From Luteolibacter flavescens (GTDB lineage Bacteria > Verrucomicrobiota > Verrucomicrobiia > Verrucomicrobiales > Akkermansiaceae): 64,000 nt of DNA. Under the pieces are notes generated by a model, which saw nothing but the letters and a program-made list of their open reading frames with translations, was not told the origin of the DNA and searched no databases. Positions 7,394-35,876 of this stretch are shown piece after piece. The translations under genes were made by a program, and so were the position numbers. The stretch's first letter is position 1. Every line of letters begins with the position of its first letter. The stretch is from positions 1 to 64,000 of the forward strand of contig NZ_JAPDDS010000014.1 of assembly GCF_025950085.1 (NCBI RefSeq). Direction: 5' to 3'.

Positions 7394-7667
7394 ACAGGGG
7401 GAGGTTTAATGAACTCAGGGGTCGCTTCTTGATCCGGGTCAACACCGCCAAGTGTGCCGGCGCACTCTACGATGTCGATGACTCCGGAGCCAGCATCTCC
7501 GAAGTCATACCGCCACTCCCCTTTCCTACCCCGCCCGGCATGAACATGCCCTCAGGGTGCGGAAGGCGACTCCAGAGAACCGCACCCAGTCCGAAAGACC
7601 GGGCGGCGCTCTGGAGGTAGGGGAGATCGAACATCAAGCGCTACTGGAGCCCATATATGAAACGGCC

Positions 7668-9503: not shown

Positions 9504-9698
9504 CTTACAGTTGGGGATATGAGATTAGGGGGGGAGAATCTTGCGGGGGCGTTCATGGACCTCCATGGACTCCAAATGGATGCACGATGAATCGGTATTG
9601 CCGGTGCCGCCGGGACTCCGCAGTGACAACCGCCGTTCATCGGCGATGGCGGGATGTGATCCCAAGCGGAATTGAAGATGGCACCGTTGTCGGGAACC

Positions 9699-9726
9699 GG
9701 CATCGGGAACCTCTCTTCCCGATGCC
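9699..9726 (-). terminator. Perfect 11-bp stem-loop after the STAND gene
   Basis: GGCATCGGGAA (9699-9709), a six-base loop, then TTCCCGATGCC (9716-9726). It lies about 45 bases past the stop of the 1827-residue protein. No T-run follows on the minus strand, so it may be an RNA-stability element or attenuator rather than a classic terminator. A second small stem (AGGCGA 9751-9756 / TCGCCT 9761-9766) sits between it and the stop codon. Together they suggest that the two halves of the cluster are not always on one equal transcript. Confidence 0.5.
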
Positions 9727-9771
9727 TGATGGGGGCGGGCTGCTCGCCCAAGGCGAGAGGTCGCCTAGGAA

Positions 9772-16882: not shown

Positions 16883-16996
16883 GGGTTCGGTCGCAGTAAA
16901 AGGCGGATGAATCGATGCCGCTCAAAACAGCGGTGCCGAAACCGCTAGAGCGATGGCAACCAAGACGTGTCCGGAAGTAGAACATGGTGCAAACTC

Positions 16997-19195: not shown

Positions 19196-19300
19196 TCGAG
19201 CATACTATTGGTGGAGAGTGGCAGATGGGAAACGGAGGAACAGTGGGGCGAGGGCACACGACTCCACGGAATGACTGCCCATGAGCATGGGCCACAGGGA

Positions 19301-20374: not shown

Positions 20375-20867
20375 ATTCGATAGGGGGAGGATGCATTGAC
20401 TCGACGATGCCTAACTGCGAATCTGGGGGATTCTCGATGATACCCGACGGGAGGCATATCCATGGAGTTCAAGCTAATTAACGTTAGGTAGCGCAAGGAT
20501 TCCCAGTCAATGAAATTGAGGGCGGCTCCAAACGGAGGTGCTGAATCTCCGTCATATGGATTTTTCAGAGCACTTGGGAAAGGCCGAGTGCGGCATTGGG
20601 GTCAGCCTCGTGATCTCCCCCAGAAGAGCCAATCCGCCCAAAGTTCCAGAGCTGCGTCGACTAAAGTGGGTTGCCTCAACGCACTTATGCCAGCCAATCC
20701 GAATCTTTGCCTAGGACGCTAAACGCCTGCCCAGTCACGACCGCCATCACTCGGCTGAGCGCCTGAAACATGTTAGACCAAGCGAGCGCTTTTCAGAAGT
20801 GGCACACTATTGGCATCCTATGCTTTCGGCACCATCAATACCCAATACTTAATTCATTGATAATAAG
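20375..20867. other. Intergenic region upstream of the lipase gene
   Basis: About 490 bases with no convincing gene. The cluster promoter should lie here on the minus strand, but I cannot identify -10/-35 boxes with confidence. AGGGGGAGG at 20382-20390 (plus strand), just upstream of the lipase ATG, is repeated at 7396-7404 before the amidase-fusion ATG. The right end runs into the partial tRNA-Leu copy. Confidence 0.4.
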
Positions 20868-20923
20868 TGCCACCGGCCGGACTCGAACCGGCACGCAGGT
20901 TACCCTGCAACGGATTTTAAGTC
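20868..20923 (-). repeat. Partial tRNA-Leu copy: attachment-site direct repeat (distal end of island)
   Basis: These 56 bases are identical to 33905-33960, the 3' part of the tRNA-Leu(TAA) gene from the anticodon loop through the variable loop and T arm to the discriminator base. Identity stops abruptly after GATTTTAAGTC, where the tRNA would continue with its anticodon stem and D arm. This is the classic footprint of an element that integrated into the 3' end of a tRNA gene. The segment between the copies (about 13 kb) would be the element. The copy is not a functional tRNA. Confidence 0.85.
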
Positions 20924-21075
20924 AGATACTGCATTCACAACCGTCTATTGTTCAATTCCTCCGATTCTCGGAATTCTCTGATTTCGGGCATTTCTCAATT
21001 TTTAAAGGCAATAAAGGCACCACCTCTTTTATCCATTTCCGATGCCAACGGATCCGAGCACCCTTAGCGTCTTTG

Positions 21076-21294
21076 ATGAAGCAGCATCTCGAGCGCCTTC
21101 TCTCGGGGGACGCGAGTGCGGAAAACGTTGAACTCGTCACCCTTGTCTCCCTTGACCGACTCCTCGGCCGAACCCGCGGCACCCTTCAGGGCAGGAAGCT
21201 CGAGCTCGCCGTCGAGGAGGCCAAGCCCGACTTCGGCGGACGGCTGCGCTTCCGCGGCCGCATTCTCGAAGCGCCCGCAACCGTCAAATCCTGA
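21076..21294 (+). CDS. Small protein upstream of the HUH gene
   Basis: A 72-residue open frame beginning MKQHLERLLSGDASAEN and ending 15 bases before the next gene on the same strand. Its codons follow the GC-rich third-position pattern of neighbouring real genes, in contrast to the AT-rich stretch just upstream. I do not recognise the family. Position and spacing suggest a two-gene unit with the Rep-like protein, perhaps a copy-control or accessory protein. The frame stays open further upstream to 20770, but that part overlaps the partial tRNA and is unlikely to be translated. Confidence 0.45.
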   Translation: MKQHLERLLSGDASAENVELVTLVSLDRLLGRTRGTLQGRKLELAVEEAKPDFGGRLRFRGRILEAPATVKS

Positions 21295-21309
21295 CCCGTC
21301 CAAGCCGTC

Positions 21310-21825
21310 ATGGAAATCCCCGAAATCCACGTGCTCAACCGCATCCGCTGGCAATTCTTCGGCACGCTCACCTTCAAGAGCGCCCGGATCTCCGACCGCA
21401 AGCGGCACCACATGTGGTACGCCTACTTGCGCCAGACCGCGCGGTGGCTCAAGATCGGGGATTTCCAGCGGCTGCTCTGGGTACTGCGCGCCGAGGAGGG
21501 CGAGCGCACCGGACGCTTCCACTTCCATTACTTTCTCGCAGGCCTGCCGACCCGCATGGCCAACCCGACCACCTGCTTCTTCCTCATGGACCTCTGGGAA
21601 GAGCTGCGCGGCGGGATGGCACGGGGCAGCGTGTTCGACCCCCAGCTGAACGCGGGGGCTTACATCACCAAGGACCTCGCCGCCTCCAACGAATCCCCGG
21701 TGATGCGGGGGTTCCACGAGTCCGGCAAGGTGTCGTGGGGGGACTGCCAGCTCACGATCGCCAACTCGGGCTGGAAAGCCGCTGCCAACCAGTTGCTCCA
21801 GCAGGAGACACGCACCCGGCGATAG
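21310..21825 (+). CDS. HUH endonuclease-like protein related to rolling-circle replication initiators
   Basis: A 171-residue protein with the three motifs of HUH single-strand endonucleases in order: motif 1 FFGTLTF (about 18-24), motif 2 with paired metal-binding histidines in GRFHFHYFLAG (about 74-84), and motif 3 with the catalytic Tyr in AGAYITKDLA (about 118-127). These enzymes nick one DNA strand, stay linked through the Tyr and start rolling-circle replication or transposition. The protein is shorter than plasmid Rep proteins and has no helicase domain. It lies about 390 bases inside the tRNA-bounded island and is followed by GC-rich hairpins that could be its target. It may be a remnant of a small plasmid or phage, or a domesticated nickase. 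Confidence 0.65.
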   Translation: MEIPEIHVLNRIRWQFFGTLTFKSARISDRKRHHMWYAYLRQTARWLKIGDFQRLLWVLRAEEGERTGRFHFHYFLAGLPTRMANPTTCFFLMDLWEELRGGMARGSVFDPQLNAGAYITKDLAASNESPVMRGFHESGKVSWGDCQLTIANSGWKAAANQLLQQETRTRR

Positions 21826-21840
21826 GGCGCGTCCAGCAAA

Positions 21841-21915
21841 CGCGGGCGTCAACACGCCGCGCTTGAAACCGGTTCCTTCCACGCCGCCCGGGCGCGGATG
21901 CGCGCAACAGCGCGC
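21841..21915. repeat. Pair of GC-rich hairpins downstream of the HUH gene
   Basis: The first hairpin is at 21841-21861: GGCGT, loop CAAC, ACGCC, extended by three more pairs past a bulged G. The second is at 21900-21915: GCGCGC, loop AACA, GCGCGC. Both have small A/C loops and lie within 90 bases of the HUH gene stop. Hairpins of this kind serve as nicking origins for HUH enzymes; here that role is inference from position only. Confidence 0.4.
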
Positions 21916-22075
21916 GCCGCTCCGGGCTGCGGGGAAGGTCGCTTGAAGGGGAGCTGTGTACACATGACAAAGATGAAAAACGGAGGGAATGCGGACATCC
22001 AGAAAACATAACAAATTTCAATTTTCAAGGACTGACAATGAATGCGTGGTGCGTAACAGGGAAAGGAATTTTACA

Positions 22076-22555
22076 CTAGAGTCCATCATAACCGCGCAGC
22101 AGCGGATCTCGAGGCATTCTATACAAAAATACGCCTTCGTCCGCGGAAACATCGTAATTCACCACGACTAATCGACAGCCATATTTTCGACAACTTGCGT
22201 AACTCGGGGATTTGTCATCAAAATCAGTTGATTTACAGCTATAATACATGCCACTTACCGGCTTACCATAGACAATACAATAACTGTATGCATTGAAGTC
22301 CAGAGCTTCTACATCCGGCATATCCATCCTTATACTTCTCGCTCTGGTCGTTCTGTTAAAAAAACTCCTGTATGATTCTGCCGAATGAAAAAACTCATAT
22401 GCATCTGGCAAGAAGCCGTCGCTTGCATTGGAGCATCTGGCTACTAACTCAAACCCCAAAAACGATTTCCTTAAATAACAGCATGCCAACGTCCCTACCC
22501 CTAAAGAGACAAGACACAAAGCAATTGCCAAACCGTAGTTTATACGCCTAATCAT
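22076..22555 (-). CDS. Small membrane-anchored protein, candidate immunity protein for the RHS toxin
   Basis: A 159-residue protein whose ATG at 22555 overlaps the RHS stop by 8 bases, the usual place for an immunity gene. An N-terminal hydrophobic segment (YGLAIALCLVSLGVGTLACCY, about 7-27, split here as one helix) would anchor it in the inner membrane with the rest outside the cytoplasm. The exported part is rich in Cys, Tyr and Asp (MYYSCKSTDFDD, SCRKYGCRLVVVNYD). Its DNA is clearly more AT-rich than the RHS core, as is the adjoining RHS tip, consistent with tip and immunity gene having been acquired together. I recognise no family. The 25 in-frame codons upstream lie inside the RHS gene and are unlikely to be used. 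Confidence 0.6.
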   Translation of the reverse strand: MIRRINYGLAIALCLVSLGVGTLACCYLRKSFLGFELVARCSNASDGFLPDAYEFFHSAESYRSFFNRTTRARSIRMDMPDVEALDFNAYSYCIVYGKPVSGMYYSCKSTDFDDKSPSYASCRKYGCRLVVVNYDVSADEGVFLYRMPRDPLLRGYDGL

Positions 22556-25500
22556 CGTTCTTTTCTTGAAGCGTTTGTCCTGGGGCCAACATAAACGAAA
22601 TGGGACGACAATAAACTCTCCACACTCCATCCTCAGGATACGGAGTCAAATATTGAGGGCTGGATTTTGCTGTGCCAGTCCGCCAAGAATGGTAATTTAC
22701 AGAGCCAGCAGTCCCATAGACACGCTCAAATGGGAATTTGTTAAAAAAGGCCTGAGCTACGGTTTCCCCTGTTCCAGCCAAATCCCCCTGCCTATGGTCT
22801 CCTGTACCGTGCGCCTTTTTTTCACAGTCGTCTGAGTGACACGAATACAGATACAGAACAGCCTTGCGAATATTGCCCTTAGGTTGAGGCAAATCTTGCA
22901 CATTCGGCGCAATACTTTTTGAAATATTAGTGCGCCCATCCCCCGTGCTAGTCATTTGCTGGGCCGCGCTTGAAAGTCTAATGGATTGATTTTTCCCGTG
23001 AACCATAATCATTACCCGGCCAATTTCACCATCCATTTTCGCCCAATCATCCTTGAAATTATCTGTAGTATCAGTCTTGCTCATTGCAACTCCTGCAACT
23101 CCATCATGCGCTACCGCATTCTGATATTGAATCAATGCTTGCTCTGAGAAATCCTTGGCATCAACAAAAATATAGGTGACAACCTTCGCAAGATCTTGAT
23201 CCGGTATTTGCACCCCGTTTCCGTCTACCCATATCCGCCCATCAGTATCTAGATATCGAATTCCGTCATTGCCGACGAACCCATACAAATTCACCCCTCC
23301 TCTTTCCTCAATCGGATCCCTTGATGGCCACCTCCCGGTCACCGGGTCGTAGTATCGGTAGCCGTAATAGTACAGCCCCGTCTCCGCATCCATTGGCTTG
23401 GTGGAGAAGCCGTAGAGAGGAGTATTATCGGATCCTGCGACCTGACGGCCAAAGGGGTCATACTCGTAGTGGGGCGCGTTTTCATACCCGTCCTCCAGAT
23501 CCTCAGAAAGGTATTCGGTGACGTTCCCATTGCCATCGTAGGTCGGATAGGAGCTATATCCCCACACCCGGTTCCCCGAGCCATCCGTGCTGGGGGCAGC
23601 ATGGTAGCAGAGAAGCCCGCCGACCCCGCCAGCCCCTTGGAATGACCCGCTGAGATCCTGGCCCCAGGTGAAGGCAAGTCGCGGCGTGATGGCAGGGCCA
23701 CTGCCGATGATATACTGCATCACCACATTCCAGCCGTCGTAAAGGTAGCCGATGTCCCAAGCTCCGCCATTCGCCGCTGCGGTCGTGGTCCTACGGATGC
23801 GCCGACTCAGATGGTCATATTTGTAGGTGGCCAGCAGGACGTCGTCACCGTTCCGAACTTCCTTGAGCCGATTCTCGCCATCCCAAGAGAACTTCAGCTC
23901 GTAACCGAGGGAGTTGATCCCTGCATCTTCCGTCAGGTTCCCGTCGTCATCATAGACAGGCATCACCAATGGAGCCTGGCGGTCCACCTCATAGTATTGG
24001 TTGAGGTTGTTGGGAGAATAGGTCGTCATGAATTCGCCGGGTCCACTGCCGTCGGTGGCGGTAAGGCGATTCCCCCTGCTGTCGTAGGTGTAGGCGCGAT
24101 TCTTCGAAGCGGGATCTTCGTTATGGATCGCGGACACGAGCTGGCCCTTCTCATCGTAGGACCACTCCCAACTGGGATTCCAGCTTCCAAATGCTGTTCC
24201 CTCGGGATTCATGTGCGTCCGCTGACCCAAGTTGTTCACCGTATAATTATACCGCGAAACCGTCGTGGCTCCAACCTTATTCAATTTGTCGGCCAGGACA
24301 TCACGATCGGAGAACCACGAATTCGTGACGGTGTGGTGCGGGCTGGTGACGGTGGCGAGCAGCCCGAAGCTGCCGGAGGTATAGCCATAGCTGAAGGACT
24401 TGCCAGCACCGGTGACCCCGCCAAGGCGCCCGGCACTGTCGTAGCCATAGCTCACCTCATGGTCGATATCCGGATCAGCGGCTGTGCCGACCTCAATCCC
24501 GAAAGGACGCCCCAGGGTATCGTAGGACCGGGTGAGGACGCGCTCCAGGGAGGTGCCTGCCACCGGATGGGTCTCGGACTCGAGTCTCAGGGTCGTCGCA
24601 TTGTACTTGTAGGTCCAGGTGACGCCGTCCCTCGTGACTGTCTCCAGCATTCCCGGCACGTGGTTGTTATCACCCGGAAACGCATCGTAGTTGTAGGTTA
24701 CGTCGGGGGTGTCGTCATTGTAGTCGATCGACGTCAGCAGCCCGTAGGTGTATCCATAGGTCGTGGTGAGCTTCACCCCGGAAGAGGGGCCGGACTCGCG
24801 GACCCACTCCCTCGTTTTGAGCCGGCCACCGGGCGTATAGGTGTAGGATGGCCCGTACTCGTCATCCACGCTATTGTTTGAGAAATCATAGCGTTTCCCC
24901 ATCAACTGGCCGTTCAGGGAGGAGTAGTTCCACCTGGTGACCGAGCTCGCACCGGTATTCAGGGTCAACATCCTGCCCGCGTAGTCGTAGGTGTAGGCCT
25001 GCTGGTAAGTCTGGGCACCGGACACTTCCTTGACATTGCCAGACGGGAAATAGGAATAGGTGGTGGTCTGGCTCATCGGGGCACCGACAGCCGTCCGACG
25101 TCCCCGGTGATCATAGGTAAAGGACGTGGCCTGACTGGCACCTGCAGGCGGGGTGGTCAGAACCACTGCATCTGAAATATTCGAGAGGTAGCCGGTAACC
25201 GTCACACCCGTGCGGGAGTCCTTGCTGTGGGTAGGACGATTGAAGCTGTCGTAGCCGCGGTCTCCATTCACCTTGCGGGCAGAGGTGGAGGCAACGATGC
25301 CATTGCTGGAGTTTCTGATCTCGGTCTTGTCCCACAATCCGCCGATGTGGGTCTCGACTGTTTTGCTCAGATCCACCGCCACCGACTCCACGGTCCAGTC
25401 ACCTCCACCGGCCAAGGTGACCGTCGAGGTTTCCTCACCCGTGACGCCGATGCTCGAGGACCATGTCCTCAGGCCGTCCGCACTCCGATCGACTGTCGAA

Positions 25501-28349
25501 ACGACGGACCCGCCGGAAGCGCTGGTGTCCCCATCCTTCCAGACTTTCGTCACGGTGCGAAGAACATGGACATTCGGCGAGCTGCTTCTCTTCACGGCGA
25601 AAGTCTCCGTGGACGTGATCTGATCCTTCCCCCAGGTGATCTCCCCGGTGAGATTGTTCATCTTCCGTGCCGAGATCGTGCGCTCTCCTTTCAAATTGTA
25701 TCCGAATCGACTGTGAAAACCATCGGCATCGACCGTGCGTTCAAGTTGTCCGATGGAATTGTAGAAGTAGGAGGTGTTCCACCTCGCTGGCTTGAATTCA
25801 CGGGATGTCCGGCCAGCATGGTCGTAGTAGGTGTATGTCGGCTCCCTCAAAGTCCCGCCTGTACCTGATGCGGATATCCCCTCGATCAGCGACTCGTAGG
25901 TATATGGCCCGGTGGAGCCGATCAGGTATGACATCTGCACCGAAGGCTGCAGATCCCCCCAAGAGCGATAGAGCTTGCCGTCGAAATAATTGAGCGAGGT
26001 CTGCTTCGGCGGGTTCGGGCCATCTCCAGTCACTTGGATCACCTGGTTCTCGACTTTCGAGCCGATCCCTGCACCCAGGCTGACCACTGTCCCAACGGGA
26101 TTCCGATAAGTGGTGGTGGTGGTCGACTGCTGCACCAGGAATCCGGTTTGAGGCGATGCCCCCCACGAGCCGGTCACAGTCCCTGCTAGATTGGAAGTCG
26201 ACCTTGAGATCTCATTGGCAAGGCCGGAGCCGAACAAGCCCCCCGATACCACCTCGGGGTAACGATATCGGGACACGGTCAAGCCCTGATACTTGACGGC
26301 ATCGGTGATGCCCAGACGATTTGTCCGGATCACGCGATGGAGTTCGTCGTACTTGTATTTGGTCTCGATCCCGTAGCGATCGGTCTCCGAAGAGAGTCCA
26401 CAACAGTCGTATGCTCGCGTCGTCACCCAGGGATTTGGCTGGGACGAGAACCATGTAATCTCTTCAGGGCGACCAAGGTGATCCACGTCTGTAGCCTTCC
26501 AATCTTCAATAACCGCACCATGTCTCTCGAGCTGTGCCGCTTGTTCCGCGGGGTTGGTCGCACCGGTGCTGATGGCGGTTGTCCATACTTTCTCGGTGTT
26601 TCCATCAGGATTGATTGTAGTTTGCCGGCTCGTGCCCTCGACAATAGCGCCAAGGCTCACGGCATTCTCGGTGATGACCCGGTATCCATTTCCATCCAAT
26701 GAGTAATAATAAAGAACACCTGTGCCGTCGGGCCGGGTGATCGACTTGGGCTTGTTCCCCGTACCGGCACCACCGGCTCCCGACTGATGAAACTGGTAAA
26801 CCGTCGTGAGAAAATTGGTCGCATTAGTGTAGACCTTCACCGACTTGGAGATGGTCGCTGCGGGACGACTCCAAGCCGTCTCGGTCTTGCGAAGAAGGAA
26901 CCCAGGTGTCGAATCTGTAACCACCTCGATGCCGGTGTCTGGATCCCATGTACTCGTCCTGGTCATGGTACCAGACCCATAGGGCATCTGCACCCAGTGA
27001 TAACGCCCCTTCAGTCCATACTCGGCATAGCTGTGCCTCTCGAAATACCCGTCGTAGCGGTCATGATCCTTGAGACGGCCCACGCCAACATACGATGCGG
27101 CACCGGTAAGCTCCCCATCCAGGTAGTAAGTCCAGGTACTCACGAGATTGACTCCGTCCGGATCCTTGCGAGTCTTGACGATTTGCCATGCACCGCCGAT
27201 GCGGTGATATTCCCGGATCTCATCCGAAACAAGAAGGTACGAAAGCGGAGGAATGGTATCGTCAGAATCCAATTCGTAAATCTTCTCGCGATAGCTATGA
27301 GCAGAGTTGGTGGCTTCCAGAATAACCTTTTCCACCTTTCTCAAGGCATTTCCAGTAGGCGAGGACAAGCCCGAGATGAAGGTCCAGGTGCTTCCGGTCT
27401 TGGTCCATTGCATGATCCGGGTGCTCCCCCCGACCATCACCGATGTCACCTGAAAGATGTCGCCTGCCAGTTTCTCAACCGTCACCGTCCTGAAAACCGA
27501 GGTCGAAGGGTCAGGAGCAGTTGGGTTAGACGATACTGAAATAGTGTAAGCATTCGGATCAGCTGCCGTTGGAGCGGCCGCCACCGAGACATGGCTGCTC
27601 TGGGTGGTCACTGAGAGTATCGCTCCGCTTCCATCGAGTGTCTTGGTGATTCCATCCCATCCGTTCAACTCCAAGGCCGACGGACCAGGATTGTCGGTGG
27701 AATCCAAATGGACATTGAGAGCTGCTGAGATGCTGCCGAAATTTGACTTTCCAACGGGTACGGTGAAACGCACCGAGCCATTTTCGCCATGCACTTCACC
27801 TGCACCCGACGCAATCGAACCATCAGGACATGTTGAGCAAGATGAATCACAACCCTTGAAACAAAATTTGAAATGGAAACATGCGGACTTCTCGGATGAC
27901 CCCTCCCTGGCACAAAACAAGGTCACAACGATAGGGCCATCCCATTCTGCTGTATCCAAGCTCCATTGCGGTGCCGGCGCATCTTCATCAATGGTCATGG
28001 TCTGTTCCTTTACGCCGTTTTCTTCCCTCAGCGTCACAATCAGATAGGACGTCCCGCAATCAGAGCAGTTCGAGGTTGTCTTTGTGGGCAGCTGAAGCTG
28101 AACCTGAATCTTTCCTTCCGAATCAGGAGAGACCTTTTTGCATTCTGACGGAAGGTCCGTGTTGCTCTCAAGGACGACTCCTCCTGCCGTCAATTTAGCA
28201 TCATCATTATAACACGTACAACATCCGCAGACAACCGGCGGATTGTCAGGAGCCGTTCCAGTAGCCCATGAAAGGCCGATCCCTGAAAGGAGCAGCACCC
28301 CCAAGGCAACGCAAAATCTTAAGGGAGAAAATCTGATGTCGTGTTTCAT
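22548..28349 (-). CDS. RHS/YD-repeat polymorphic toxin with a variable C-terminal tip
   Basis: A 1933-residue exported protein. An N-terminal signal sequence (MKHDIRFSPLRFC, then a hydrophobic run ending SWATG) is followed by a Cys-rich domain (VVCGCCTCYN, GCDSSCSTC). A long array of YD/RHS repeats then forms the usual beta-cage. The core ends with the standard boundary YYDPVTGRWPSRDPIEERGG and NLYGFVGND. The last ~235 residues are the tip. It contains VMIMVHGKNQ and, about 50 residues later, AVLYLYSCHSDD: a strand-HG and strand-SC pair like the His-Cys dyad of clan CD cysteine peptidases (caspase/CHAT/DUF4347-like). The tip and downstream gene are AT-rich; the core is GC-rich. The start is taken as the ATG at 28349; an in-frame TTG at 28382 would add 11 residues. 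It follows the helical-repeat gene by 29 bases. Confidence 0.85.
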   Translation of the reverse strand: MKHDIRFSPLRFCVALGVLLLSGIGLSWATGTAPDNPPVVCGCCTCYNDDAKLTAGGVVLESNTDLPSECKKVSPDSEGKIQVQLQLPTKTTSNCSDCGTSYLIVTLREENGVKEQTMTIDEDAPAPQWSLDTAEWDGPIVVTLFCAREGSSEKSACFHFKFCFKGCDSSCSTCPDGSIASGAGEVHGENGSVRFTVPVGKSNFGSISAALNVHLDSTDNPGPSALELNGWDGITKTLDGSGAILSVTTQSSHVSVAAAPTAADPNAYTISVSSNPTAPDPSTSVFRTVTVEKLAGDIFQVTSVMVGGSTRIMQWTKTGSTWTFISGLSSPTGNALRKVEKVILEATNSAHSYREKIYELDSDDTIPPLSYLLVSDEIREYHRIGGAWQIVKTRKDPDGVNLVSTWTYYLDGELTGAASYVGVGRLKDHDRYDGYFERHSYAEYGLKGRYHWVQMPYGSGTMTRTSTWDPDTGIEVVTDSTPGFLLRKTETAWSRPAATISKSVKVYTNATNFLTTVYQFHQSGAGGAGTGNKPKSITRPDGTGVLYYYSLDGNGYRVITENAVSLGAIVEGTSRQTTINPDGNTEKVWTTAISTGATNPAEQAAQLERHGAVIEDWKATDVDHLGRPEEITWFSSQPNPWVTTRAYDCCGLSSETDRYGIETKYKYDELHRVIRTNRLGITDAVKYQGLTVSRYRYPEVVSGGLFGSGLANEISRSTSNLAGTVTGSWGASPQTGFLVQQSTTTTTYRNPVGTVVSLGAGIGSKVENQVIQVTGDGPNPPKQTSLNYFDGKLYRSWGDLQPSVQMSYLIGSTGPYTYESLIEGISASGTGGTLREPTYTYYDHAGRTSREFKPARWNTSYFYNSIGQLERTVDADGFHSRFGYNLKGERTISARKMNNLTGEITWGKDQITSTETFAVKRSSSPNVHVLRTVTKVWKDGDTSASGGSVVSTVDRSADGLRTWSSSIGVTGEETSTVTLAGGGDWTVESVAVDLSKTVETHIGGLWDKTEIRNSSNGIVASTSARKVNGDRGYDSFNRPTHSKDSRTGVTVTGYLSNISDAVVLTTPPAGASQATSFTYDHRGRRTAVGAPMSQTTTYSYFPSGNVKEVSGAQTYQQAYTYDYAGRMLTLNTGASSVTRWNYSSLNGQLMGKRYDFSNNSVDDEYGPSYTYTPGGRLKTREWVRESGPSSGVKLTTTYGYTYGLLTSIDYNDDTPDVTYNYDAFPGDNNHVPGMLETVTRDGVTWTYKYNATTLRLESETHPVAGTSLERVLTRSYDTLGRPFGIEVGTAADPDIDHEVSYGYDSAGRLGGVTGAGKSFSYGYTSGSFGLLATVTSPHHTVTNSWFSDRDVLADKLNKVGATTVSRYNYTVNNLGQRTHMNPEGTAFGSWNPSWEWSYDEKGQLVSAIHNEDPASKNRAYTYDSRGNRLTATDGSGPGEFMTTYSPNNLNQYYEVDRQAPLVMPVYDDDGNLTEDAGINSLGYELKFSWDGENRLKEVRNGDDVLLATYKYDHLSRRIRRTTTAAANGGAWDIGYLYDGWNVVMQYIIGSGPAITPRLAFTWGQDLSGSFQGAGGVGGLLCYHAAPSTDGSGNRVWGYSSYPTYDGNGNVTEYLSEDLEDGYENAPHYEYDPFGRQVAGSDNTPLYGFSTKPMDAETGLYYYGYRYYDPVTGRWPSRDPIEERGGVNLYGFVGNDGIRYLDTDGRIWVDGNGVQIPDQDLAKVVTYIFVDAKDFSEQALIQYQNAVAHDGVAGVAMSKTDTTDNFKDDWAKMDGEIGRVMIMVHGKNQSIRLSSAAQQMTSTGDGRTNISKSIAPNVQDLPQPKGNIRKAVLYLYSCHSDDCEKKAHGTGDHRQGDLAGTGETVAQAFFNKFPFERVYGTAGSVNYHSWRTGTAKSSPQYLTPYPEDGVWRVYCRPISFMLAPGQTLQEKNDD

Positions 28350-28378
28350 CGTCGCGGTGAAAGTAGGAAAGGGTGAAA

Positions 28379-29365
28379 TCAATTTTTCGGGGGTCGGGGG
28401 AGGTGACGCAGTGCTCCGGCGATACGGGGGTCGTGAGAGGTCAGGGTGCGCAAGACATCAAGATCGGACGGATCACCAATACGGCCGAGGGCCGCGATGG
28501 CTGACATGCGCTCCAAGGCATGGGCGCTTTCATTTTTTGCGAGCTTGAGCAGAGGAACACGCATATCGTCCATTCCCCGTTCTCCGGAGATTCGGCATGC
28601 CACCATTCTGGACCGGACCGAGGCATCGCCGGTATCCACATCGTCGGTGAGAATCGACCTCACTTCGAAGTTCATGGTTGAAAGGTCCATTCCGCTCCGC
28701 TGGTCAGGATCAAGCAGGTGCAAGCTGAGCAAGGCGGTTGGATAGAGCGCGCCACGAGCAGCCAGCAACTCCTCGAAGGTCGCTTCGATCGCACGCCGTA
28801 AGCTATTGTTCTCGCCTGCGCTCTCCCATGCCCTGCGCAAATGTTGGAGGGCGTAGTCCCGTGTGGTGGCGTCACGGTTCACATCGCGAGCAACGGTCGC
28901 CAGTACTTCGGAGAAAACCTGCAAGTCCACCGGCTGTCGATGCAGGACATTCGCTACTTCGTGAAACCAAGTAGACATGGCTGCGATCGAATCACCTTTG
29001 CCGGGGGTTACTAAAAGCGCGCGCAGCAACTCCTCGAGCTCGTCCGGAGAGAGTTGACCGCGGATGGTCATAAGCTCGCGCGTTCTGACGTTGGTGGTTA
29101 GCTCTCCCGAAAGACCCAAGGCGGAGGTGAGGTCGGGGCGCAAGATCTCGCCGCGATTCGACTCGGAACTCTCGCGAGGATGGAGATCAGTGAGAGGCAG
29201 CGAGCGAACCATCGACGGAGGCGTAGCGCCTCCCCGGAAGACGTTTTCACGCAGAAGCCACAGCGAACCTGCTGCAAGCACGCAGCCCGCAGCTAGAAGC
29301 ATGAGCCGACGCTCACGCCAGAAGCGTTTCGCACGCTCCAGCATCATTGGTTGCGGTGAACTCAC
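28379..29365 (-). CDS. Membrane-anchored helical (HEAT-like) repeat protein of the RHS operon
   Basis: A 328-residue protein. The GTG at 29365 overlaps the upstream stop as GTGA, so translation is probably coupled; ATGs at 29347 and 29344 are alternatives. A single membrane helix (about 22-40, LMLLAAGCVLAAGSLWLL) follows a basic N terminus. The rest is helical, with HEAT-like units near the C terminus (SAIAALGRIGDPSDLDVLRTL). No enzyme motif is visible. Sitting between the surface protein and the RHS toxin, it may act in assembly or retention of the toxin at the envelope. That role is inferred from position only. Confidence 0.65.
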   Translation of the reverse strand: MSSPQPMMLERAKRFWRERRLMLLAAGCVLAAGSLWLLRENVFRGGATPPSMVRSLPLTDLHPRESSESNRGEILRPDLTSALGLSGELTTNVRTRELMTIRGQLSPDELEELLRALLVTPGKGDSIAAMSTWFHEVANVLHRQPVDLQVFSEVLATVARDVNRDATTRDYALQHLRRAWESAGENNSLRRAIEATFEELLAARGALYPTALLSLHLLDPDQRSGMDLSTMNFEVRSILTDDVDTGDASVRSRMVACRISGERGMDDMRVPLLKLAKNESAHALERMSAIAALGRIGDPSDLDVLRTLTSHDPRIAGALRHLPRPPKN

Positions 29366-32300
29366 TCAGCTTCACCGGTTGGAGTTTCAGCGTCAGTGGA
29401 TTCAGAAGTGCTCTCATCCCTTTCATCAGGGCCGTCACCGAAGGGCCTGATCCAGTGGCATACATACGGGGTGTCATTTCCGGGTGCCTTGTAGATTTCA
29501 AAGCTGGCAGCTCCGTTCTCATCGAAGTCATCCGCCGTCAGCTGCAACCATGATCCACCATTGGCAAAGACAGCGTCAGGAACATACATCTCGATCCATA
29601 TCGAGAGGTCGGGCGGAATCTCTCCATCCAGGACGTAGCCGACACGGACCACACGGGTGCCATCTGGAAGAGTCTCGATCAGTTGGTGATCACCCGTCCA
29701 TGTCGCCGAAGCGAACAAGAAGCCATGGATATTGGTAGCATCGAGAATGGCTCCTCCCTCCGGCAGGCGGGCAATCACCCGGCTTGACGTTTCACGCGCT
29801 ATGCCGAAAGAGGCGTCAAAGGATCGCTTGCCGTCCGACGGCAATTCGGAAAGCAACAGATTATCGTCACTCTGTATGACTGCAGCCTCGGGCAATATCG
29901 AAGGTGTCCAAGCGCGGCTACGATCATATGGAACATGGAAGTCCGCCCCAAGGTCGGCATCTACCACAACAAATCTGACAGATGATGTCAGGACCTCTCC
30001 TGCTGGCCCCTTTGCTGAAGTAGCCAACTCGTAAGATCCTTCTTTCGAGAACCGGTGCATGAAGGGCAATGTGGAGGAACCCGAGTGCAGCGATTTTCCA
30101 TCAAGACTTAGAGAGAATTGCCATCCATCTGCACCTCCCGAAGGATCGCAGGCCATCAGACGCACCGAGTCGCCCCTGCGAATGTACCTGTGATCCACAC
30201 CGTCAAGCAGGTTGATCGCTTTCCATACGAGATCGATTTCCTCGGTGATCGCGCCGCCTTCATAGGAGAGCTTTGCGGTGGTGGGAGAACCCAAGGCATC
30301 CAATTCAACATCGGCAAACCATCCTTTGCCGACACCTCGTGTGGCTTTAACCACGCGATCTCCTGAAGTGATTGATAAATCTTCAAAAAACCGTGACACA
30401 CCTTCAAGGTTCGCTGGAGACGTTTCAAATCCAGCTTCGGAGACACTTACGCGATTTAGATCTCGATAGTATCTCTCCAGCCAATCGGGCAATCCATTGG
30501 CGTTCGCATCTTCGCCTGTCTGGGCAAGTATTTCGATCGATTGAATCACCATTGAAACCCCAGACCGGACATTTCGGTTCACGATGGTGATCTGATGCCG
30601 TCCGGCAGAGAGCCACGGAGTTAGGAAAGAGAGTTTGGTGAGCGTAGACGTGAGATCGCCTTCACCAACCACAACTCCGTCGACTTTGATTGTGACCGCT
30701 ATTGGCGAAGCATGAGGCTCCGCAGAAATTGAATTTCCCGCCAGATCCACTTGATAGATTCCTGGCTCCGAAACCTCGAATTCCCAGTTCGACTGACCAC
30801 GACGCGCAAGTGAATAGACCGCCCCATCCCTTACATAGGGGAGCCATGTCATTGTGCCTGACACAGCCCCTCCAGGAGCGAGGCTTGTCACTACTTTCGG
30901 AGGAGATGCGTCTTTGACCGTAGGATCGCTTCCATACACCTGAACTTCTGCCCGGTCATCCACACCGTCCCCGTCGCTATCTGCCAGACACGGGTTGGTT
31001 CCCAGCAGGAACTCTTCTCTGTTCGTGAGGCCGTCATTATCGAAGTCACCGTTCTCTCCCTGCTTCACCGGATCCTTCGACCCATTGTCTTGTGGATCAA
31101 GTCCGTAGTCCTTCTCCCAAGAGTCCGGCAAGTAATCGTCATCAAGATCGTCGTCATCGCCCGGGAAAGAACGAAGCATCTCGGTGGGGATCACTTCCCG
31201 CTCGCTCCACTCCCCACCGCTATCGCGATACTGCCATGCGATGGCCACGTGATCCTTGTCGCCTGCATCCTTGTGAAGGATCTCGAGGAAGCGCTCTTCG
31301 CCTTCATCGAGAAAGTTAGAACCGGATTTCTGCGCTGCACGTTCATCCCACGCTTCCGGTTCAGTCCAAGCGTCAGCATCAGGGCTAGCCCAAGTTGACG
31401 GCAGGATCCAAGCAATCTTCCGCTTCAGAAACTTCTGCTCCGAATCCGACAGCCACAGTTCGCAGTGGTCGTCGCCAGCGATCCAGAAGCGATATTCACC
31501 TGCCACGGGTGCCTTCACGGAACCACGGATGCGGGAGGTGAAGTGATCCGTCGTATTCATCTCCGACCTCGCACCGTCGGTGAGGGTAAACATCGACGGC
31601 GGCCTGAGAAGGTCTCCCGCTTCCCGGCTGCGCTGGAGTGAAACCCCGGGCGTCCGGAACCACCACTCACGCGACAGAGCACCGGGAACCGAGGTCCTGG
31701 AATAGGGATCGGTCCCGATCTGGTACTCGAGAAGATTGGACAATCCGTCGCCATCCGGATCTCCGCTCTCCGTCAAGAATGGAGCGCCGGCACCAGCCTG
31801 AGCCTCCATCTCGCGGACCCACGAGTCCGGCAGCCCGTTGCCATCGGCATCATCGGCATCCTTCGCGGGTGACCGCAGGAACTGGGGCAGCACCGCCTTG
31901 AAGTCCTTCTCCCCTTCCATGCGCCAACCGAGGGCCGACCAGCCGGGCTGGACCGCGTCCTTGTGGATGACTTCGAAATAATACTCCCGGCCCGCCTCCA
32001 GCTCGAGCACGGGCGTACGCTGGGACGGGATCTTCGACCATTCCTTCTCCGCTGCATCGCCCCGCCAGTAGTCATTGAACGCGACACGCTTCTTGTTGAA
32101 CTTCGACGCATCCTCGGAGAACCAGAGCTCGACGGTATCGTCGCCGGCCACGGCGAGTTCATACTTGCCAGACTCGGTGGGCACCAGATAGCCGCTCAGC
32201 CTGCTGCCGAAATGGCTGGCCTCCAGCGAGGGCACCGCCGCTCCCTGGATGAACAGGGCCTCATGCGGAGTTTGGGAGAAACGAGGATCCCGCCGGAGTT

Positions 32301-33201
32301 CCTGAACTTCCCGCCCCCATGACCCATACCAGATCTCCATGAGGAGGAAGCCATTGAGCGGCTGGTCATCCATCGGATCGGTATGGCCGATGAATTCGTC
32401 GAAATTGCTGACCCCGTCACCGTCGGCATCCTGCCACCATGCGGCATCGGGTCGGCCCGCCAGGCCGGTTGCGCGCTGCCATTCATCCGGCAGACCGTCG
32501 TCATCCGCATCCTCGTCCGACCCCATCCACGGTGTCAGCACGTCCACGGGAACCTCAGCCGGCTTCTCGTCTTCATCGAATTGCCACAGCAATTCGAAGT
32601 GATCGTCCCCGGCACCCTCCTTGTGATATGCCTCCACATAATACGATTGGCCCTTCTCCACGCGGATCGGGGCGCTCCACTGGCTGTTGATCCTGCCGGT
32701 GTGACCACGGGGTGAGGATCCGAACCAACCCGGTCCTGTGATCCAAGCGATCTTCTTCTTGGAGAACGGACTGGCTGACGGGGACAACCAGAGTTCGGAA
32801 TTGTCATCAGAGACCAGAACGAAGCGGACGGTGCCGGAGCGGGGAGCCACGAGCTGTCCCCGCATCCTGACCCCGAAGTCCTTGCCATCGCCCGCAGGCA
32901 GCATCGTGGCGGGAGAGACGCCCTTCACTGCCGGAGCCTTCCTCATCTCGGCAGACTCCAACATCTCCCTTACCGTCTGGCCACCAATGCCCTCCCAACG
33001 TTCGTAGAGCAGCCCGGAAGGAGAGACCTCCCCCCGGTCGAACTCCGTCGGATATGGCAGGAGCCACGTCGAGGGCTCGAGGCGGGTCTCATTCTCGGGC
33101 GGGGCGGACGGTTCCTCTGCTTGAACTGACGCCATCATCAGCATCGCCCCGGTGACGGCTGAGAACTTGCAGGGACGGAGGAATGCTGAGGGAGGTCTCA
33201 T
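29362..33201 (-). CDS. Large secreted surface protein with PA14 domains and thrombospondin type 3 repeats
   Basis: A 1279-residue exported protein; the signal peptide ends near SVQAEE. Three PA14-like carbohydrate-binding domains can be seen, each with the signature DDNSELWLS, DDTVELWFS or DDHCELWLS and a following YVEAYHKEG/YFEVIHKDA/FLEILHKDA strand (about 60-235, 285-460, 530-720). Between and after them lie Asp-rich calcium-binding segments of TSP3 type (DADDDGLPDEW, DPDGDGLSNLLEY, DSDGDGVDD). A carbohydrate-binding-like domain (about 770-910) and a PKD-like region follow, and the C terminus is acidic and Ser/Thr-rich. It is the first gene of the four-gene operon, with a GTGA overlap to the next. 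It probably binds surface glycans, perhaps to bring the RHS protein to its target. Confidence 0.8.
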   Translation of the reverse strand: MRPPSAFLRPCKFSAVTGAMLMMASVQAEEPSAPPENETRLEPSTWLLPYPTEFDRGEVSPSGLLYERWEGIGGQTVREMLESAEMRKAPAVKGVSPATMLPAGDGKDFGVRMRGQLVAPRSGTVRFVLVSDDNSELWLSPSASPFSKKKIAWITGPGWFGSSPRGHTGRINSQWSAPIRVEKGQSYYVEAYHKEGAGDDHFELLWQFDEDEKPAEVPVDVLTPWMGSDEDADDDGLPDEWQRATGLAGRPDAAWWQDADGDGVSNFDEFIGHTDPMDDQPLNGFLLMEIWYGSWGREVQELRRDPRFSQTPHEALFIQGAAVPSLEASHFGSRLSGYLVPTESGKYELAVAGDDTVELWFSEDASKFNKKRVAFNDYWRGDAAEKEWSKIPSQRTPVLELEAGREYYFEVIHKDAVQPGWSALGWRMEGEKDFKAVLPQFLRSPAKDADDADGNGLPDSWVREMEAQAGAGAPFLTESGDPDGDGLSNLLEYQIGTDPYSRTSVPGALSREWWFRTPGVSLQRSREAGDLLRPPSMFTLTDGARSEMNTTDHFTSRIRGSVKAPVAGEYRFWIAGDDHCELWLSDSEQKFLKRKIAWILPSTWASPDADAWTEPEAWDERAAQKSGSNFLDEGEERFLEILHKDAGDKDHVAIAWQYRDSGGEWSEREVIPTEMLRSFPGDDDDLDDDYLPDSWEKDYGLDPQDNGSKDPVKQGENGDFDNDGLTNREEFLLGTNPCLADSDGDGVDDRAEVQVYGSDPTVKDASPPKVVTSLAPGGAVSGTMTWLPYVRDGAVYSLARRGQSNWEFEVSEPGIYQVDLAGNSISAEPHASPIAVTIKVDGVVVGEGDLTSTLTKLSFLTPWLSAGRHQITIVNRNVRSGVSMVIQSIEILAQTGEDANANGLPDWLERYYRDLNRVSVSEAGFETSPANLEGVSRFFEDLSITSGDRVVKATRGVGKGWFADVELDALGSPTTAKLSYEGGAITEEIDLVWKAINLLDGVDHRYIRRGDSVRLMACDPSGGADGWQFSLSLDGKSLHSGSSTLPFMHRFSKEGSYELATSAKGPAGEVLTSSVRFVVVDADLGADFHVPYDRSRAWTPSILPEAAVIQSDDNLLLSELPSDGKRSFDASFGIARETSSRVIARLPEGGAILDATNIHGFLFASATWTGDHQLIETLPDGTRVVRVGYVLDGEIPPDLSIWIEMYVPDAVFANGGSWLQLTADDFDENGAASFEIYKAPGNDTPYVCHWIRPFGDGPDERDESTSESTDAETPTGEAE

Positions 33202-33904
33202 TCTTGAGGCTGGTCCCTACAGGCTATTCGCATTATCTGTCGATGCTTTCTCGCAACAATATTGACACATTTTCGCAATGTCTGATTTCAACCCCATATC
33301 CCACTCCCAAGCGCTCATTCCAAAACGAGCGAGTTTTGGCAATGATGCCTGACCTCGCTCAACGATGAAAGATCCTAAAGCCCAGCTTGATATGACTTGC
33401 AGCCTCTTGCCCGACCAGCCTAGCCGACTGAAGACAGGTATTGTTTGCACCGACATGGGCAAGGCCGTTGCGGGGCCTTCCGGATTCTCCACGGACACGT
33501 AAAGTAAAAGGGCTGTTCAGGCCACGATCCATCTCTTAGACAGGACCTTCAGTCCCTTCCCTTCGCCTTGTCCATTGCGACATGGCGATCTCAAGATATC
33601 ACTCCGCCGGTGCCGGTCTTGCCGAGGCATATCGCCTTCCAAAGCTCTAGCGTAACCCCCATCGGCCCAGATTTTCCTCAGCAGTCGTAACGCCTCGTCA
33701 ACGGCTCGAACAGAAGACGTGCCTTATCGCAATCCAGTATGTCGGCCGAAGTGATCTTCACCGACAGCAAGCTGCCGATTTCACTCGCTCGGCATTGCCC
33801 ATTTCCTGCCAGAGATACATGCTCACTGACTCCACACGGTTCTTCTCTGTTCCCCCCAAAAACCCACAGGGATATCGCCTCAACCTCTTGGAAAATAAAT
33901 AGCA
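33202..33904. other. Intergenic region between the RHS operon and tRNA-Leu
   Basis: About 700 bases, lower in GC than the flanking genes. No frame here looks coding. The promoter of the RHS operon should lie near 33205-33330, where AT-rich stretches occur, but I cannot define its boxes. The right end holds the 3' flank of the tRNA gene. I see no integrase remnant. Confidence 0.45.
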
Positions 33905-33960
33905 TGCCACCGGCCGGACTCGAACCGGCACGCAGGTTACCCTGCAACGGATTTTAAGTC
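33905..33960 (-). repeat. Attachment-site direct repeat inside tRNA-Leu (tRNA-proximal end of island)
   Basis: The 56-bp segment shared with 20868-20923. It keeps the tRNA intact, as expected for the end of an element that restores the gene on insertion. The flank beyond 33960 completes the tRNA, whereas the flank beyond 20923 does not. Confidence 0.85.
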
Positions 33961-33990
33961 CGCGGCGTCTACCGATTCCGCCACGGTGGC
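33905..33990 (-). tRNA. tRNA-Leu (anticodon TAA)
   Basis: An 86-nt class II tRNA. The acceptor arms GCCACCG and CGGTGGC pair, followed by discriminator A. The D arm (GGCGGAATCGGTAGACGCC) is followed by an anticodon arm with loop CTTAAAA, giving anticodon TAA. The long variable arm is typical of leucine tRNAs, and the T arm is GCCGGTTCGAGTCCGGC. CCA is not encoded. Positions 33905-33960 are repeated exactly at 20868-20923, marking this gene as the integration site of the island to its left. Confidence 0.97.
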
Positions 33991-34139
33991 AATGGTCCCG
34001 CGCGTTGACGGGGGGAGACGCGGGCGACTATGGGCAGAGGCGGGGAGGCGTCGAGCCGGAATGATGTGCTTCGCGATGATAAGGCAGACGCGGGGCTTTC
34101 CTCCGCATCGCGCATGAAGGATGCTGGCATCCGACACGC

Positions 34140-35876
34140 ATGCCCCTGATCGACCTACTTCCCCTCGCCTCCGGCGGTACCGGCATCACTCCTTTCTTCG
34201 GCATGCTGGCGATGGTCCTGGTACTGGCGGTCTTTGTATCGCTGGCGCTGGTGAAGCTCCGCCAGAGCCTGCTGGTGGGCTATTTCCTCTGCGGCATTTT
34301 GATCGCGAACAGCGGCGTGCTGGTGCTGGTCGGCATCGGGCCGGAGGACCCCACGATCGCGAATCTCGGCGAACTGGGCGTGATCCTGCTGATGTTCACG
34401 CTCGGGCTGGAGTTCTCGCTGGAAGAGTTCCGCCATCTCTGGCGGCAGGCGATCTTCGGCGGCGGGCTGCAAGTGGCGCTGACGACGATCGTCGCGGTGG
34501 TCATCTCCCGCTGGACGGGCCTGCCGTGGCCGGAAACGATCGTCCTCTCGGTGGCGGTCTCGCTGAGTTCCACGGCCGTCGCCATGAAGTCCTTCCAGGA
34601 ACTCGGGCAGCCGAGCAATCCCGGGGCGCGCTTCTCGCTCGGTGTCGCGCTTTTCCAGGATCTGGCGGTCATCCTCTTCATCCTGCTGCTGCCTGCGATC
34701 TACGGCAGGGACAGCGGCTCGACGGTCGGGCAGATCGCCTGGGCGATGGGGAAAGGCGTGCTCTTCCTCGGGGCTGCCATCCTGCTCGGTCGCTATGGCA
34801 ATACGCCGCTGCTGCACGCCGTGGCCCGCACACGCAGCCGGGAGCTCTTCACGCTCACCATCATCGGCACCTGTGCTGCGGTGGCGCTGGCCGGGGAGGC
34901 GCTCCAGCTCAGCCTGGCGCTCGGGGCCTTCGCCGCCGGGCTGGTGCTCAGCGAGTCGATCTACTCGCACCGCATCATGGCGGACATCCTGCCCTTCAAG
35001 GATCTATTCCTCACGATCTTCTTCGTCTCCGTGGGCCTGATGATCGACCTGAATGCGCTCGCGGCACATTGGGTCTTCGTGCTGCTGGGAACGGCGCTGA
35101 TCATCGCGGTGAAAGGCGGCATCATCTTCGGAGTGACGAAGATCCTGAAGGTCCCGCTGCGCCCTGCCATCCTCGCCACCGCGAGTCTGGCGAGCACGGG
35201 GGAATTCTCGCTGGTGCTGTTGAAGAAGGCGGATACTTTCCGGGACTTCGACCCCGCCATCGAGCAGCTCCTGCTCGCCTGCACCGCCGTGACGATGGGG
35301 CTGGTGCCGACGCTGATGCGCGGGGCTGCGCCCTTTGGCCGGCTGCTGGAGAGCAAGGGCATGAAATCCCCCGTCCGCCCCTCACCGGACACGGCCCCGA
35401 CCGCCGCCGTCCGGAAAATCAACGACCACGCCATCATCTGCGGCTACGGCCCGGTCGGCCAGAGCCTCAATGAGGCGATGCGCCGCTGCGATATCCCCAC
35501 GCTGGTGATGGAGCTGAATTCCGACACCGTCCGCGAACTGAAATCCGCCGGGCAGCCGGTCCTTTTCGCCGACGCCGCCCACCCGGAAGCGCTCGACCTG
35601 GCCGGGATCGAGCGCGCGCGCTTCGTCGCCTTCACCTTCCCCGCCGTGCCGATCACCCTCGCCGCGCTGCCGCTGATCCGCGAAAAGAATCCCGGCATCC
35701 TCGTTTTCGCCCGGGCGAAATTCCAGACCGAGGTCGAGCAGCTCCGCGCCCACGACGTGCAGGTGATCCACGACGAGCGGGAGAGCTCCATCGCCATGAT
35801 CGAAAATGCCATGGGTGCCTACCAGCGGGCGGACCTGTCGCATGAGGACGTGCTGACAATCGTGGACCGAAAGTGA
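34140..35876 (+). CDS. CPA2-family cation:proton antiporter with C-terminal RCK (TrkA-N) domain
   Basis: A 578-residue KefB/YbaL-type transporter that exchanges K+ or Na+ for protons across the inner membrane. Residues about 15-390 hold roughly 12 membrane helices, with the family features LGELGVILLMFTLGLEFSLE and LSLALGAFAAGLVLSES. Residues about 420-560 are a Rossmann-fold TrkA-N domain (IICGYGPVGQSLNEAM), which binds a nucleotide and gates transport. It stands alone between the tRNA and a strong terminator. The start ATG at 34140 gives a conventional N terminus. Ion specificity cannot be told from sequence. Confidence 0.9.
   Translation: MPLIDLLPLASGGTGITPFFGMLAMVLVLAVFVSLALVKLRQSLLVGYFLCGILIANSGVLVLVGIGPEDPTIANLGELGVILLMFTLGLEFSLEEFRHLWRQAIFGGGLQVALTTIVAVVISRWTGLPWPETIVLSVAVSLSSTAVAMKSFQELGQPSNPGARFSLGVALFQDLAVILFILLLPAIYGRDSGSTVGQIAWAMGKGVLFLGAAILLGRYGNTPLLHAVARTRSRELFTLTIIGTCAAVALAGEALQLSLALGAFAAGLVLSESIYSHRIMADILPFKDLFLTIFFVSVGLMIDLNALAAHWVFVLLGTALIIAVKGGIIFGVTKILKVPLRPAILATASLASTGEFSLVLLKKADTFRDFDPAIEQLLLACTAVTMGLVPTLMRGAAPFGRLLESKGMKSPVRPSPDTAPTAAVRKINDHAIICGYGPVGQSLNEAMRRCDIPTLVMELNSDTVRELKSAGQPVLFADAAHPEALDLAGIERARFVAFTFPAVPITLAALPLIREKNPGILVFARAKFQTEVEQLRAHDVQVIHDERESSIAMIENAMGAYQRADLSHEDVLTIVDRK

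What the first reader, a model, noticed from the sequence alone, without database searches (positions are those of the whole stretch)
20868..33960. 13-kb island bounded by a 56-bp tRNA-Leu duplication, without an integrase
A perfect 56-bp copy of the tRNA 3' part marks a former integration at tRNA-Leu(TAA). The segment between carries an RHS toxin operon and an HUH nickase but no tyrosine recombinase. The partial tRNA also sits right at the border of the trypsin defence island, so a second, older element in tandem at the same tRNA, with its far end beyond the window, is plausible.
Basis: partly seen in the sequence, partly recalled or inferred. Interest (0 to 1): 0.75.

Follow-up and report, generated by a model that had tools for sequence, protein, structure and literature searches.

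The report
Integrase-less tRNA island with phage replication module
A 13-kb stretch of foreign DNA sits beside a leucine tRNA gene in a bacterium, most likely as the second of two stacked insertions, and it joins an RHS-type toxin operon to what looks like the DNA-copying module of a filamentous phage, a pairing also seen in two related bacteria.

Summary
The 56-bp repeat is real: the 3' part of tRNA-Leu(TAA), ending in the anticodon arm. No integrase lies between the copies. A third copy sits near the end of another contig (C19:3161-3217), with a tyrosine integrase starting about 130-160 bp inside it. The contig gap was not closed. Five of 56 other genomes carry a 3' copy with the same endpoint; four have an integrase just inside it. 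E2 keeps a similar left arm but no integrase, as in cis-mobilizable elements.

New here: E2's "HUH nickase" belongs to an inovirus-type module: a small ORF whose relative is predicted as an OB fold, a pII-type Rep, and a covarying hairpin (21868-21957). All six short-Rep loci found have the hairpin; 7 of 12 longer-Rep relatives, mostly inovirus prophages, have a model match 3' of Rep (4 at E below 0.01). Three of the six, E2 included, face an RHS unit. I read E2 as a stranded, inovirus-satellite-like island with RHS cargo. Mobility is untested.

The parts
33904..33991 (-). intact tRNA-Leu(TAA); target gene, right end of E2
   Evidence: ARAGORN
33905..33960 (.). 56-bp repeat, tRNA copy
20868..20923 (.). 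56-bp repeat, displaced 3' fragment; boundary of E1 and E2
   Evidence: third copy C19:3161-3217
20800..20815 (+). TGGCACACTATTGGCA, candidate right arm of E1 (type A integrase)
   Evidence: weak: the pattern was composed from this site and the C19 site after they were seen; one match each in the window and C19:1-20000 at 2 mismatches or fewer, 0.08 and 0.04 expected; local score 22 against shuffle maximum 21
20949..21019 (+). left arm of E2, like the arms of type B integrase loci
   Evidence: 74-76% identity to G011, G012 and G016 arms, pairwise E 1e-5 to 9e-7
21076..21294 (+). small ORF, 72 aa, partner of Rep; pV/SSB-like; shorter at the N-terminus than its relatives
   Evidence: within ORF 20770-21294; alignment; relative in L097 modelled with pLDDT 83.6, best PDB hits OB folds, E 6.7e-3 and worse
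21310..21825 (+). HUH endonuclease, 171 aa, pII-type Rep; H71, H73, Y118, K121 kept (catalytic roles recalled)
21868..21957 (+). conserved hairpin 42 bp after the Rep stop; candidate replication origin or packaging signal
22076..22630 (-). 184-aa ORF after the RHS gene; candidate immunity gene
   Evidence: position only; no Pfam, PHROG or NCBIfam match
22548..28382 (-). RHS protein, 1944 aa, variable C-terminal domain
28379..29365 (-). HEAT-repeat protein, 328 aa
29362..33201 (-). 1279-aa protein with PA14 domains and TSP3 repeat
1..20867 (.). inferred right part of E1: type I RM genes (56-3804), five trypsin-domain proteins (4214-19195), lipase (19301-20374)
   Evidence: G+C 58.2% against 64.2% right of the tRNA
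1..77 (.). multicopy repeat present at other contig ends; assembly break
34140..35876 (+). transporter gene (Kef-type by eye, not scanned) beside the tRNA; flank shared with G007 and G009

Best explanation
Two elements lie in tandem at tRNA-Leu(TAA). E1 (C19:3217 to window 20923) carries its own tyrosine integrase (type A) and defence cargo. E2 (20868 to 33960) went in between E1 and the tRNA by crossover in the anticodon arm; its left arm points to another integrase type (B) whose gene was lost or acted in trans. E2's payload is an inovirus-type replication module (pV-like ORF, pII-type Rep, hairpin) facing an RHS toxin operon. E2 keeps both repeat ends but no recombinase, so today it could move only together with E1 or with a foreign integrase. 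Shown: repeats, third copy with integrase, module, hairpin. Inferred: the C19-C14 join, order of events, loss of the integrase, function of the hairpin, mobility.
For: Third copy with an integrase just inside it. One full tRNA-Leu(TAA) and two 3' fragments in the genome by this search. Lower G+C on the inner sides: C19:1-3160 57.1% against 65.9% for C19:3301-20000; window 1-20867 58.2%, E2 56.3%, right flank 64.2%. Same endpoint in 5 of 56 other genomes, with a PHROG-integrase gene just inside in 4 of the 5. E2's left arm resembles type B arms. Six short-Rep loci, each with the hairpin; of 12 longer-Rep genome loci 10 have a Zot homologue nearby. The hairpin model built from the six matches L133 (7.8e-16), L128 (8e-7), L124 (0.0016) and L130 (0.003), which were not used to build it, 3' of the Rep stop. 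Covariation score 0.400 against 0.161 in shuffles, 0 of 500 as high.
Against: C19 and C14 are not shown to touch: no exact end overlap, both ends are repeats. The arm motif that ties them is barely above shuffles. The same arm test used as a control worked in G012 (34 against 20) but not in G016 (18 against 22). E2's tRNA-side flank shows no type B arm, so E2 may be a remnant or mosaic. No true empty site was found; the C19 permease gene and the tRNA match lie on different contigs in all four other genomes that have both. The small ORF is shorter than its relatives, so the module may be damaged. 5 of 12 longer-Rep loci show no hairpin match 3' of Rep.
Confidence: 0.7

Rival explanations
1. Ordinary decayed island: E2 is an old integrase-carrying island that lost its integrase; Rep, small ORF and hairpin are leftovers of an earlier phage with no bond to the RHS operon. 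(This overlaps with the best explanation on the site and differs on the meaning of the module.)
For: No integrase and no right arm in E2; small ORF shortened; in 33202-33904 only a 93-aa ORF reaches 90 aa or more.
Against: Rep residues and hairpin are kept; 3 of 6 short modules face an RHS unit although these genomes show 0 to 3 RHS-repeat contigs each.
Confidence: 0.45
2. E2 was integrated and is mobilised in trans by the integrase of its neighbour E1, as in accretion of cis-mobilizable elements.
For: Same 56-57 bp core in all three copies; E1 has an integrase; Dehalococcoides has tandem ssrA islands, 15 of them without an integration module (PMC3146451, passages).
Against: E2's left arm resembles type B, not type A, arms; A and B integrases gave no blastp match at E 1.
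Confidence: 0.3
3. The C19 copy marks an unrelated insertion elsewhere and E2 stands alone at the tRNA.
For: Contigs not joined; the C19 permease is not near tRNA-Leu in other genomes; arm link weak and one of two controls failed.
Against: Only one full tRNA-Leu(TAA) is there to serve as the C19 element's other end; G+C drop on both inner sides.
Confidence: 0.15
4. The repeat is a simple partial duplication of the tRNA gene, not an attachment site.
For: Nothing beyond the absence of an integrase in the 13 kb.
Against: Same endpoint in five other genomes, four with an integrase just inside; third copy with integrase in this genome.
Confidence: 0.02

Closest known systems
Cis-mobilizable elements; tandem ssrA islands of Dehalococcoides (PMC3146451, passages seen)
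   Same: Islands in tandem at one RNA gene, bounded by short repeats of its 3' end, some without an integration module
   Different: There a serine recombinase at the tmRNA gene; here tyrosine integrases at tRNA-Leu(TAA), and the integrase-less island carries a phage-type replication module
Islander-type tDNA islands (PMC4383910, search listing with start of abstract)
   Same: Regenerated target and displaced fragment mark the ends
   Different: No integrase between the ends
Inoviruses (PMC6813254, passages seen)
   Same: pII-type Rep with a small partner gene; hairpin match 3' of Rep in 7 of 12 longer-Rep loci fetched here
   Different: No hit to Zot, secretin or pIII of L100 in the window, C19:1-40000, C14:64001-84000 or the other five short-Rep loci; cargo is RHS
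Filamentous-phage satellites of Vibrio (RS1, TLC; search listing, details recalled)
   Same: Replicons that keep a Rep and depend on a helper for packaging
   Different: E2 is 13 kb, at a tRNA, with a toxin operon; no helper identified
RHS polymorphic toxins (PMC3482391, passages seen)
   Same: RHS repeats, Rhs_assc_core domain, variable tip, small following ORF
   Different: Here next to a phage replication module; 'rolling circle', 'genomic island' and 'mobile element' have no occurrence in the held part of that paper (300,000 of 357,715 characters)

Membership tests
tRNA-targeted genomic island | displaced 3' fragment and intact tRNA as ends | tested here: met
tRNA-targeted genomic island | integrase gene between the ends | tested here: not met
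   E2:
cis-mobilizable element | both end repeats kept, no integrase of its own | tested here: met
cis-mobilizable element | neighbouring element with an integrase at the same site | tested here: inconclusive
   third copy with integrase exists, but across an open contig gap
cis-mobilizable element | mobilised by the neighbour | not testable with these tools
   needs culture
inovirus | Zot/pI and structural genes | tested here: not met
   tblastn with Zot, secretin and pIII of L100, no hits at E 0.01
inovirus satellite | inovirus-related Rep with its hairpin, no structural genes | tested here: met
inovirus satellite | intact single-strand-binding partner | tested here: inconclusive
   small ORF present but shorter than relatives
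inovirus satellite | packaged by a helper | not testable with these tools
   no second Rep of this family in the genome: one match in G000
RHS polymorphic toxin | RHS core domain followed by a variable tip | tested here: met
RHS polymorphic toxin | cognate immunity gene | tested here: inconclusive
   ORF in the right place, no family match

The most novel reading that the evidence does not exclude
A family of inovirus-derived satellites in this bacterial order carries RHS toxin units, including an orphan tip (L132), and so spreads or exchanges RHS warheads: a filamentous-phage route for polymorphic-toxin diversification. E2 is a member captured at tRNA-Leu.
Probability: 0.25. Interest if true: 0.75.

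Novelty: new variant of a known kind. Interest (0 to 1): 0.5.

Why it matters
How RHS tips move between bacteria is known to me mainly as recombination at resident rhs genes (general knowledge). A recurring pairing of RHS units with a small phage replicon would supply a vehicle, and it can be tested by looking for circular or single-stranded forms. The site itself adds tRNA-Leu(TAA) in this bacterial group as a target of at least two tyrosine integrase types.

Tried and rejected
Simple tRNA duplication: rejected on the shared endpoint and the integrases in relatives. Synteny proof of the C19-C14 join: failed. The C19 permease has homologues in 4 of 56 other genomes, each on another contig than the tRNA match; beyond the tRNA, L055 and L057 hold other genes. 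HsdR to bridge the gap: the only HSDR_N match in the genome lies 18.6 kb inside contig C1. HUH in phage and plasmid collections: no match; PHROGs: none. PDB sequence search with the HUH profile: one weak unrelated hit, E 0.075. HUH model poor (pLDDT 61.3); its best structural hits are Rep endonucleases, E 0.02 and worse, mixed with unrelated folds. Type B arm on the tRNA side of E2: not found. A second place with part of E2's left-end region, C19:25182-25274 (82%), has no tRNA copy and stays unexplained. Rfam on L132 and L097: tRNAs only.

Chance estimate for Rep beside an RHS end: 2e-8 for 3 of 6 within 1 kb. From Rep stop to RHS gene end it is 722 bp (window), 842 (L132) and 1164 (L099), so 1 kb is too tight; at 1.2 kb it is 3.6e-8. 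It assumes random placement, uses rough RHS counts (G338 set to 2 to include its orphan tip) and was made after seeing the pattern; clustering of cargo in islands would raise it. A guide only.

Full report
OBSERVATION. The tRNA-Leu(TAA) gene lies at 33904-33991 on the minus strand. Its 3' 56 bp are repeated exactly at 20868-20923. The window begins at the edge of contig C14; the genome has 71 contigs. The search with the tRNA gene gave one full copy, the 56-bp copy in the window and a third of 57 bp at C19:3161-3217; the other 14 matches were short, E 0.02 or worse. No integrase was found in the 13 kb.

THE SECOND ELEMENT. In window orientation the third copy has an FtsX-family permease gene on its left (C19:3315-6098) and a 441-aa tyrosine integrase on its right (C19:1707-3032): Pfam Phage_integrase E 3.4e-5, below that family's cut-off, and PHROG integrase E 5.4e-23. 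The ORF starts 128 bp inside the copy; the first ATG is about 160 bp inside. The contig ends 3.2 kb from the copy. C19:1-77 and C14:1-77 are multicopy repeats that also stand at other contig ends. G+C is 57.1% in C19:1-3160 and 65.9% in C19:3301-20000; 58.2% in window 1-20867; 56.3% in E2; 64.2% right of the tRNA. A 16-bp motif between the C19 copy and its integrase recurs 53 bp left of the middle copy. The pattern was composed from those two sites, and by local score it is hardly better than shuffles (22 against 21; one of 14 pairs compared). As controls, G012 and G016 also have partial copy plus integrase and full tRNA on different contigs: the arms match clearly in G012 (34 against 20) but not in G016 (18 against 22). 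I conclude that E1 most likely spans from C19 to 20923 and that E2 follows it. This join is inferred, not shown.

RELATIVES. Of 57 genomes searched (own included), 46 matched the tRNA query. Five others hold 3' fragments ending at query positions 55-57: G011, G012, G016, G026, G043. G011 gave no full-length match (its genome is 72% complete). In G011, G012 and G016 an integrase ORF of 391-418 aa (63-80% identical to one another) starts 116-152 bp inside the fragment; in G026 one of 418 aa starts 22 bp inside, counted from its first possible start. All four match PHROG integrase at E 2.3e-18 or better. In G043 none was seen before the contig end. E2's left flank aligns with the arms of G011, G012 and G016 (74-76%); its tRNA-side flank does not. 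G007 and G009 share the transporter gene beside the tRNA, have a single tRNA match each, and carry other genes on its 3' side. That is half of an empty site.

THE MODULE IN E2. The HUH ORF has a subthreshold match to REP_ORF2-G2P. Homologues were found in 18 of 386 genomes of the order and 2 of 260 of the family, own genome counted in both. The named-genome scan gave two loci titled Verrucomicrobiales bacterium (L097, L098), which by coordinates are the loci of G144 and G151, counted once here. The viral contigs gave one (L121), the same prophage as L100. Of the 18, six have a short Rep (window, L097, L098, L099, L122, L132; the last is cut by a contig edge) and twelve a longer one. Of the twelve, 10 have a Zot homologue in the fetched stretch (L100, L123-L130, L133; not L131 or L134). 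Zot of L100 is a Pfam match; secretin and pIII were named by eye. The six short loci had no hit to these three. Five of the six show the small ORF upstream. The L097 version is predicted with pLDDT 83.6 and a five-strand order, best hits OB folds of RPA and SSB, E 6.7e-3 and worse, none at 0.001; the other four of its five models were poor (mean pLDDT 44 or less). The window's version lacks the N-terminal part. L097 and L098 are small elements at tRNA-Asn(GTT) with repeats of 25 and 51 bp (the latter next to a run of N) and an integrase beside the tRNA.

THE HAIRPIN. All six short loci share a hairpin 38-54 bp after the Rep stop. As DNA each folds better than its shuffles, z -3.55 to -5.88; for the window 1 of 200 shuffles did as well, for the others none. 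Thirteen of 26 pairs change on both sides, against 5-8 when slid and 7.3 on average in shuffles (0 of 500 as high). The structure came from the same alignment, which favours it. A covariance model built from the six, run on 43 sources, gave 21 matches at E up to 1: the six at 2.7e-19 or better; and, 3' of the Rep stop (from 4 bp overlap to 206 bp beyond), L133 7.8e-16, L128 8e-7, L124 0.0016, L130 0.003, L129 0.033, L123 0.042, L100 and its duplicate L121 0.19. Three more were reverse-strand echoes (L122, L099, window). Four were elsewhere: L125 0.031, L056 0.040, L126 0.11 (inside Rep), and a second in L129 0.13; so matches at 0.03 or worse count by position only. Of the 12 longer-Rep loci 7 thus have a match 3' of Rep, 4 of them below 0.01, and 5 (L125, L126, L127, L131, L134) have none. 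A CTTGAA-type flank (CTTGTA in L128) is seen after the hairpin in the 11 sequences printed. Origin or packaging signal is an inference from position and conservation.

RHS. Beyond Rep and hairpin, and facing them, lies an RHS unit in the window, in L099 (a partial RHS gene, then a long one) and in L132 (an orphan tip with only positions 30-75 of the 76-position core model). A small ORF comes first, ending 250, 198 and 366 bp from the Rep stop; the RHS gene ends at 722, 1164 and 842 bp. Their core ends are alike (50-76% over 41-105 aa) while the tips gave no alignment. L122 has type I restriction-modification genes there, L097 an AAA ATPase, L098 other genes. RHS-repeat matches fall on 2 contigs in G000, 3 in G048, 1 in G338, 1 in G144, 1 in G167 and none in G151. 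Three of six is far more than random placement would give, with the cautions under Tried and rejected.

LITERATURE. Tandem ssrA islands without integration modules, called possible cis-mobilizable elements, are described for Dehalococcoides (PMC3146451, passages). The inovirus catalogue mentions toxin-antitoxin pairs; its held main text has no occurrence of 'satellite' or 'Verrucomicrobi' (PMC6813254, passages). Searches: inovirus + satellite + Rhs, no paper; inovirus + Verrucomicrobi, 20 papers, 10 seen as listing; Rhs + orphan + toxin + filamentous phage, 5, seen as listing; inovirus, satellite, replication initiation, integrase (three of four), 62, 12 seen as listing; polymorphic toxin, Rhs, Verrucomicrobi, mobile genetic element (three of four), 59, 10 seen as listing; six phrases for inovirus satellites, 1 paper, a phage-display review; Rhs, rolling-circle replication, polymorphic toxin, single-stranded DNA-binding (three of four), none. 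None of the titles listed describes this pairing; the papers behind most listings were not read, and only open-licence papers are held. That tRNA crossovers in the anticodon arm are a usual habit of tyrosine integrases is recalled.

VERDICT. The replication module with its hairpin, and its repeated place beside RHS units, is the part that a specialist may not expect.

Noticed in passing
window 4214-19195: Five proteins with Trypsin_2 domains (one below the cut-off), joined to amidase, DNA/RNA nuclease (two) or AAA/GDSL-like regions, or alone, next to type I RM genes; looks like a trypsin-based defence cluster in E1.
   Followed up: partly
window 56-3804: HsdS and HsdM at the contig edge without HsdR in the window; the only HSDR_N match in the genome is on C1.
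   Followed up: partly
L010:5182-5274 (C19:25182-25274): 82% copy of window 20994-21085 (part of E2's left arm up to the start of the 72-aa ORF), beside genes that look like an iron ABC transporter by eye, with no tRNA copy.
   Followed up: partly
L097:162-4955: Apparently complete 4.7-kb element at tRNA-Asn(GTT): 25-bp repeat, OB-fold-like ORF, Rep, hairpin, ATPase, HTH protein, integrase.
   Followed up: partly
L121 and L100: An IMG/VR viral contig is 100% identical in five proteins to the inovirus prophage of G051.
   Followed up: no
L122:11158-14516: Short Rep module followed by type I RM genes HsdM and HsdS.
   Followed up: no
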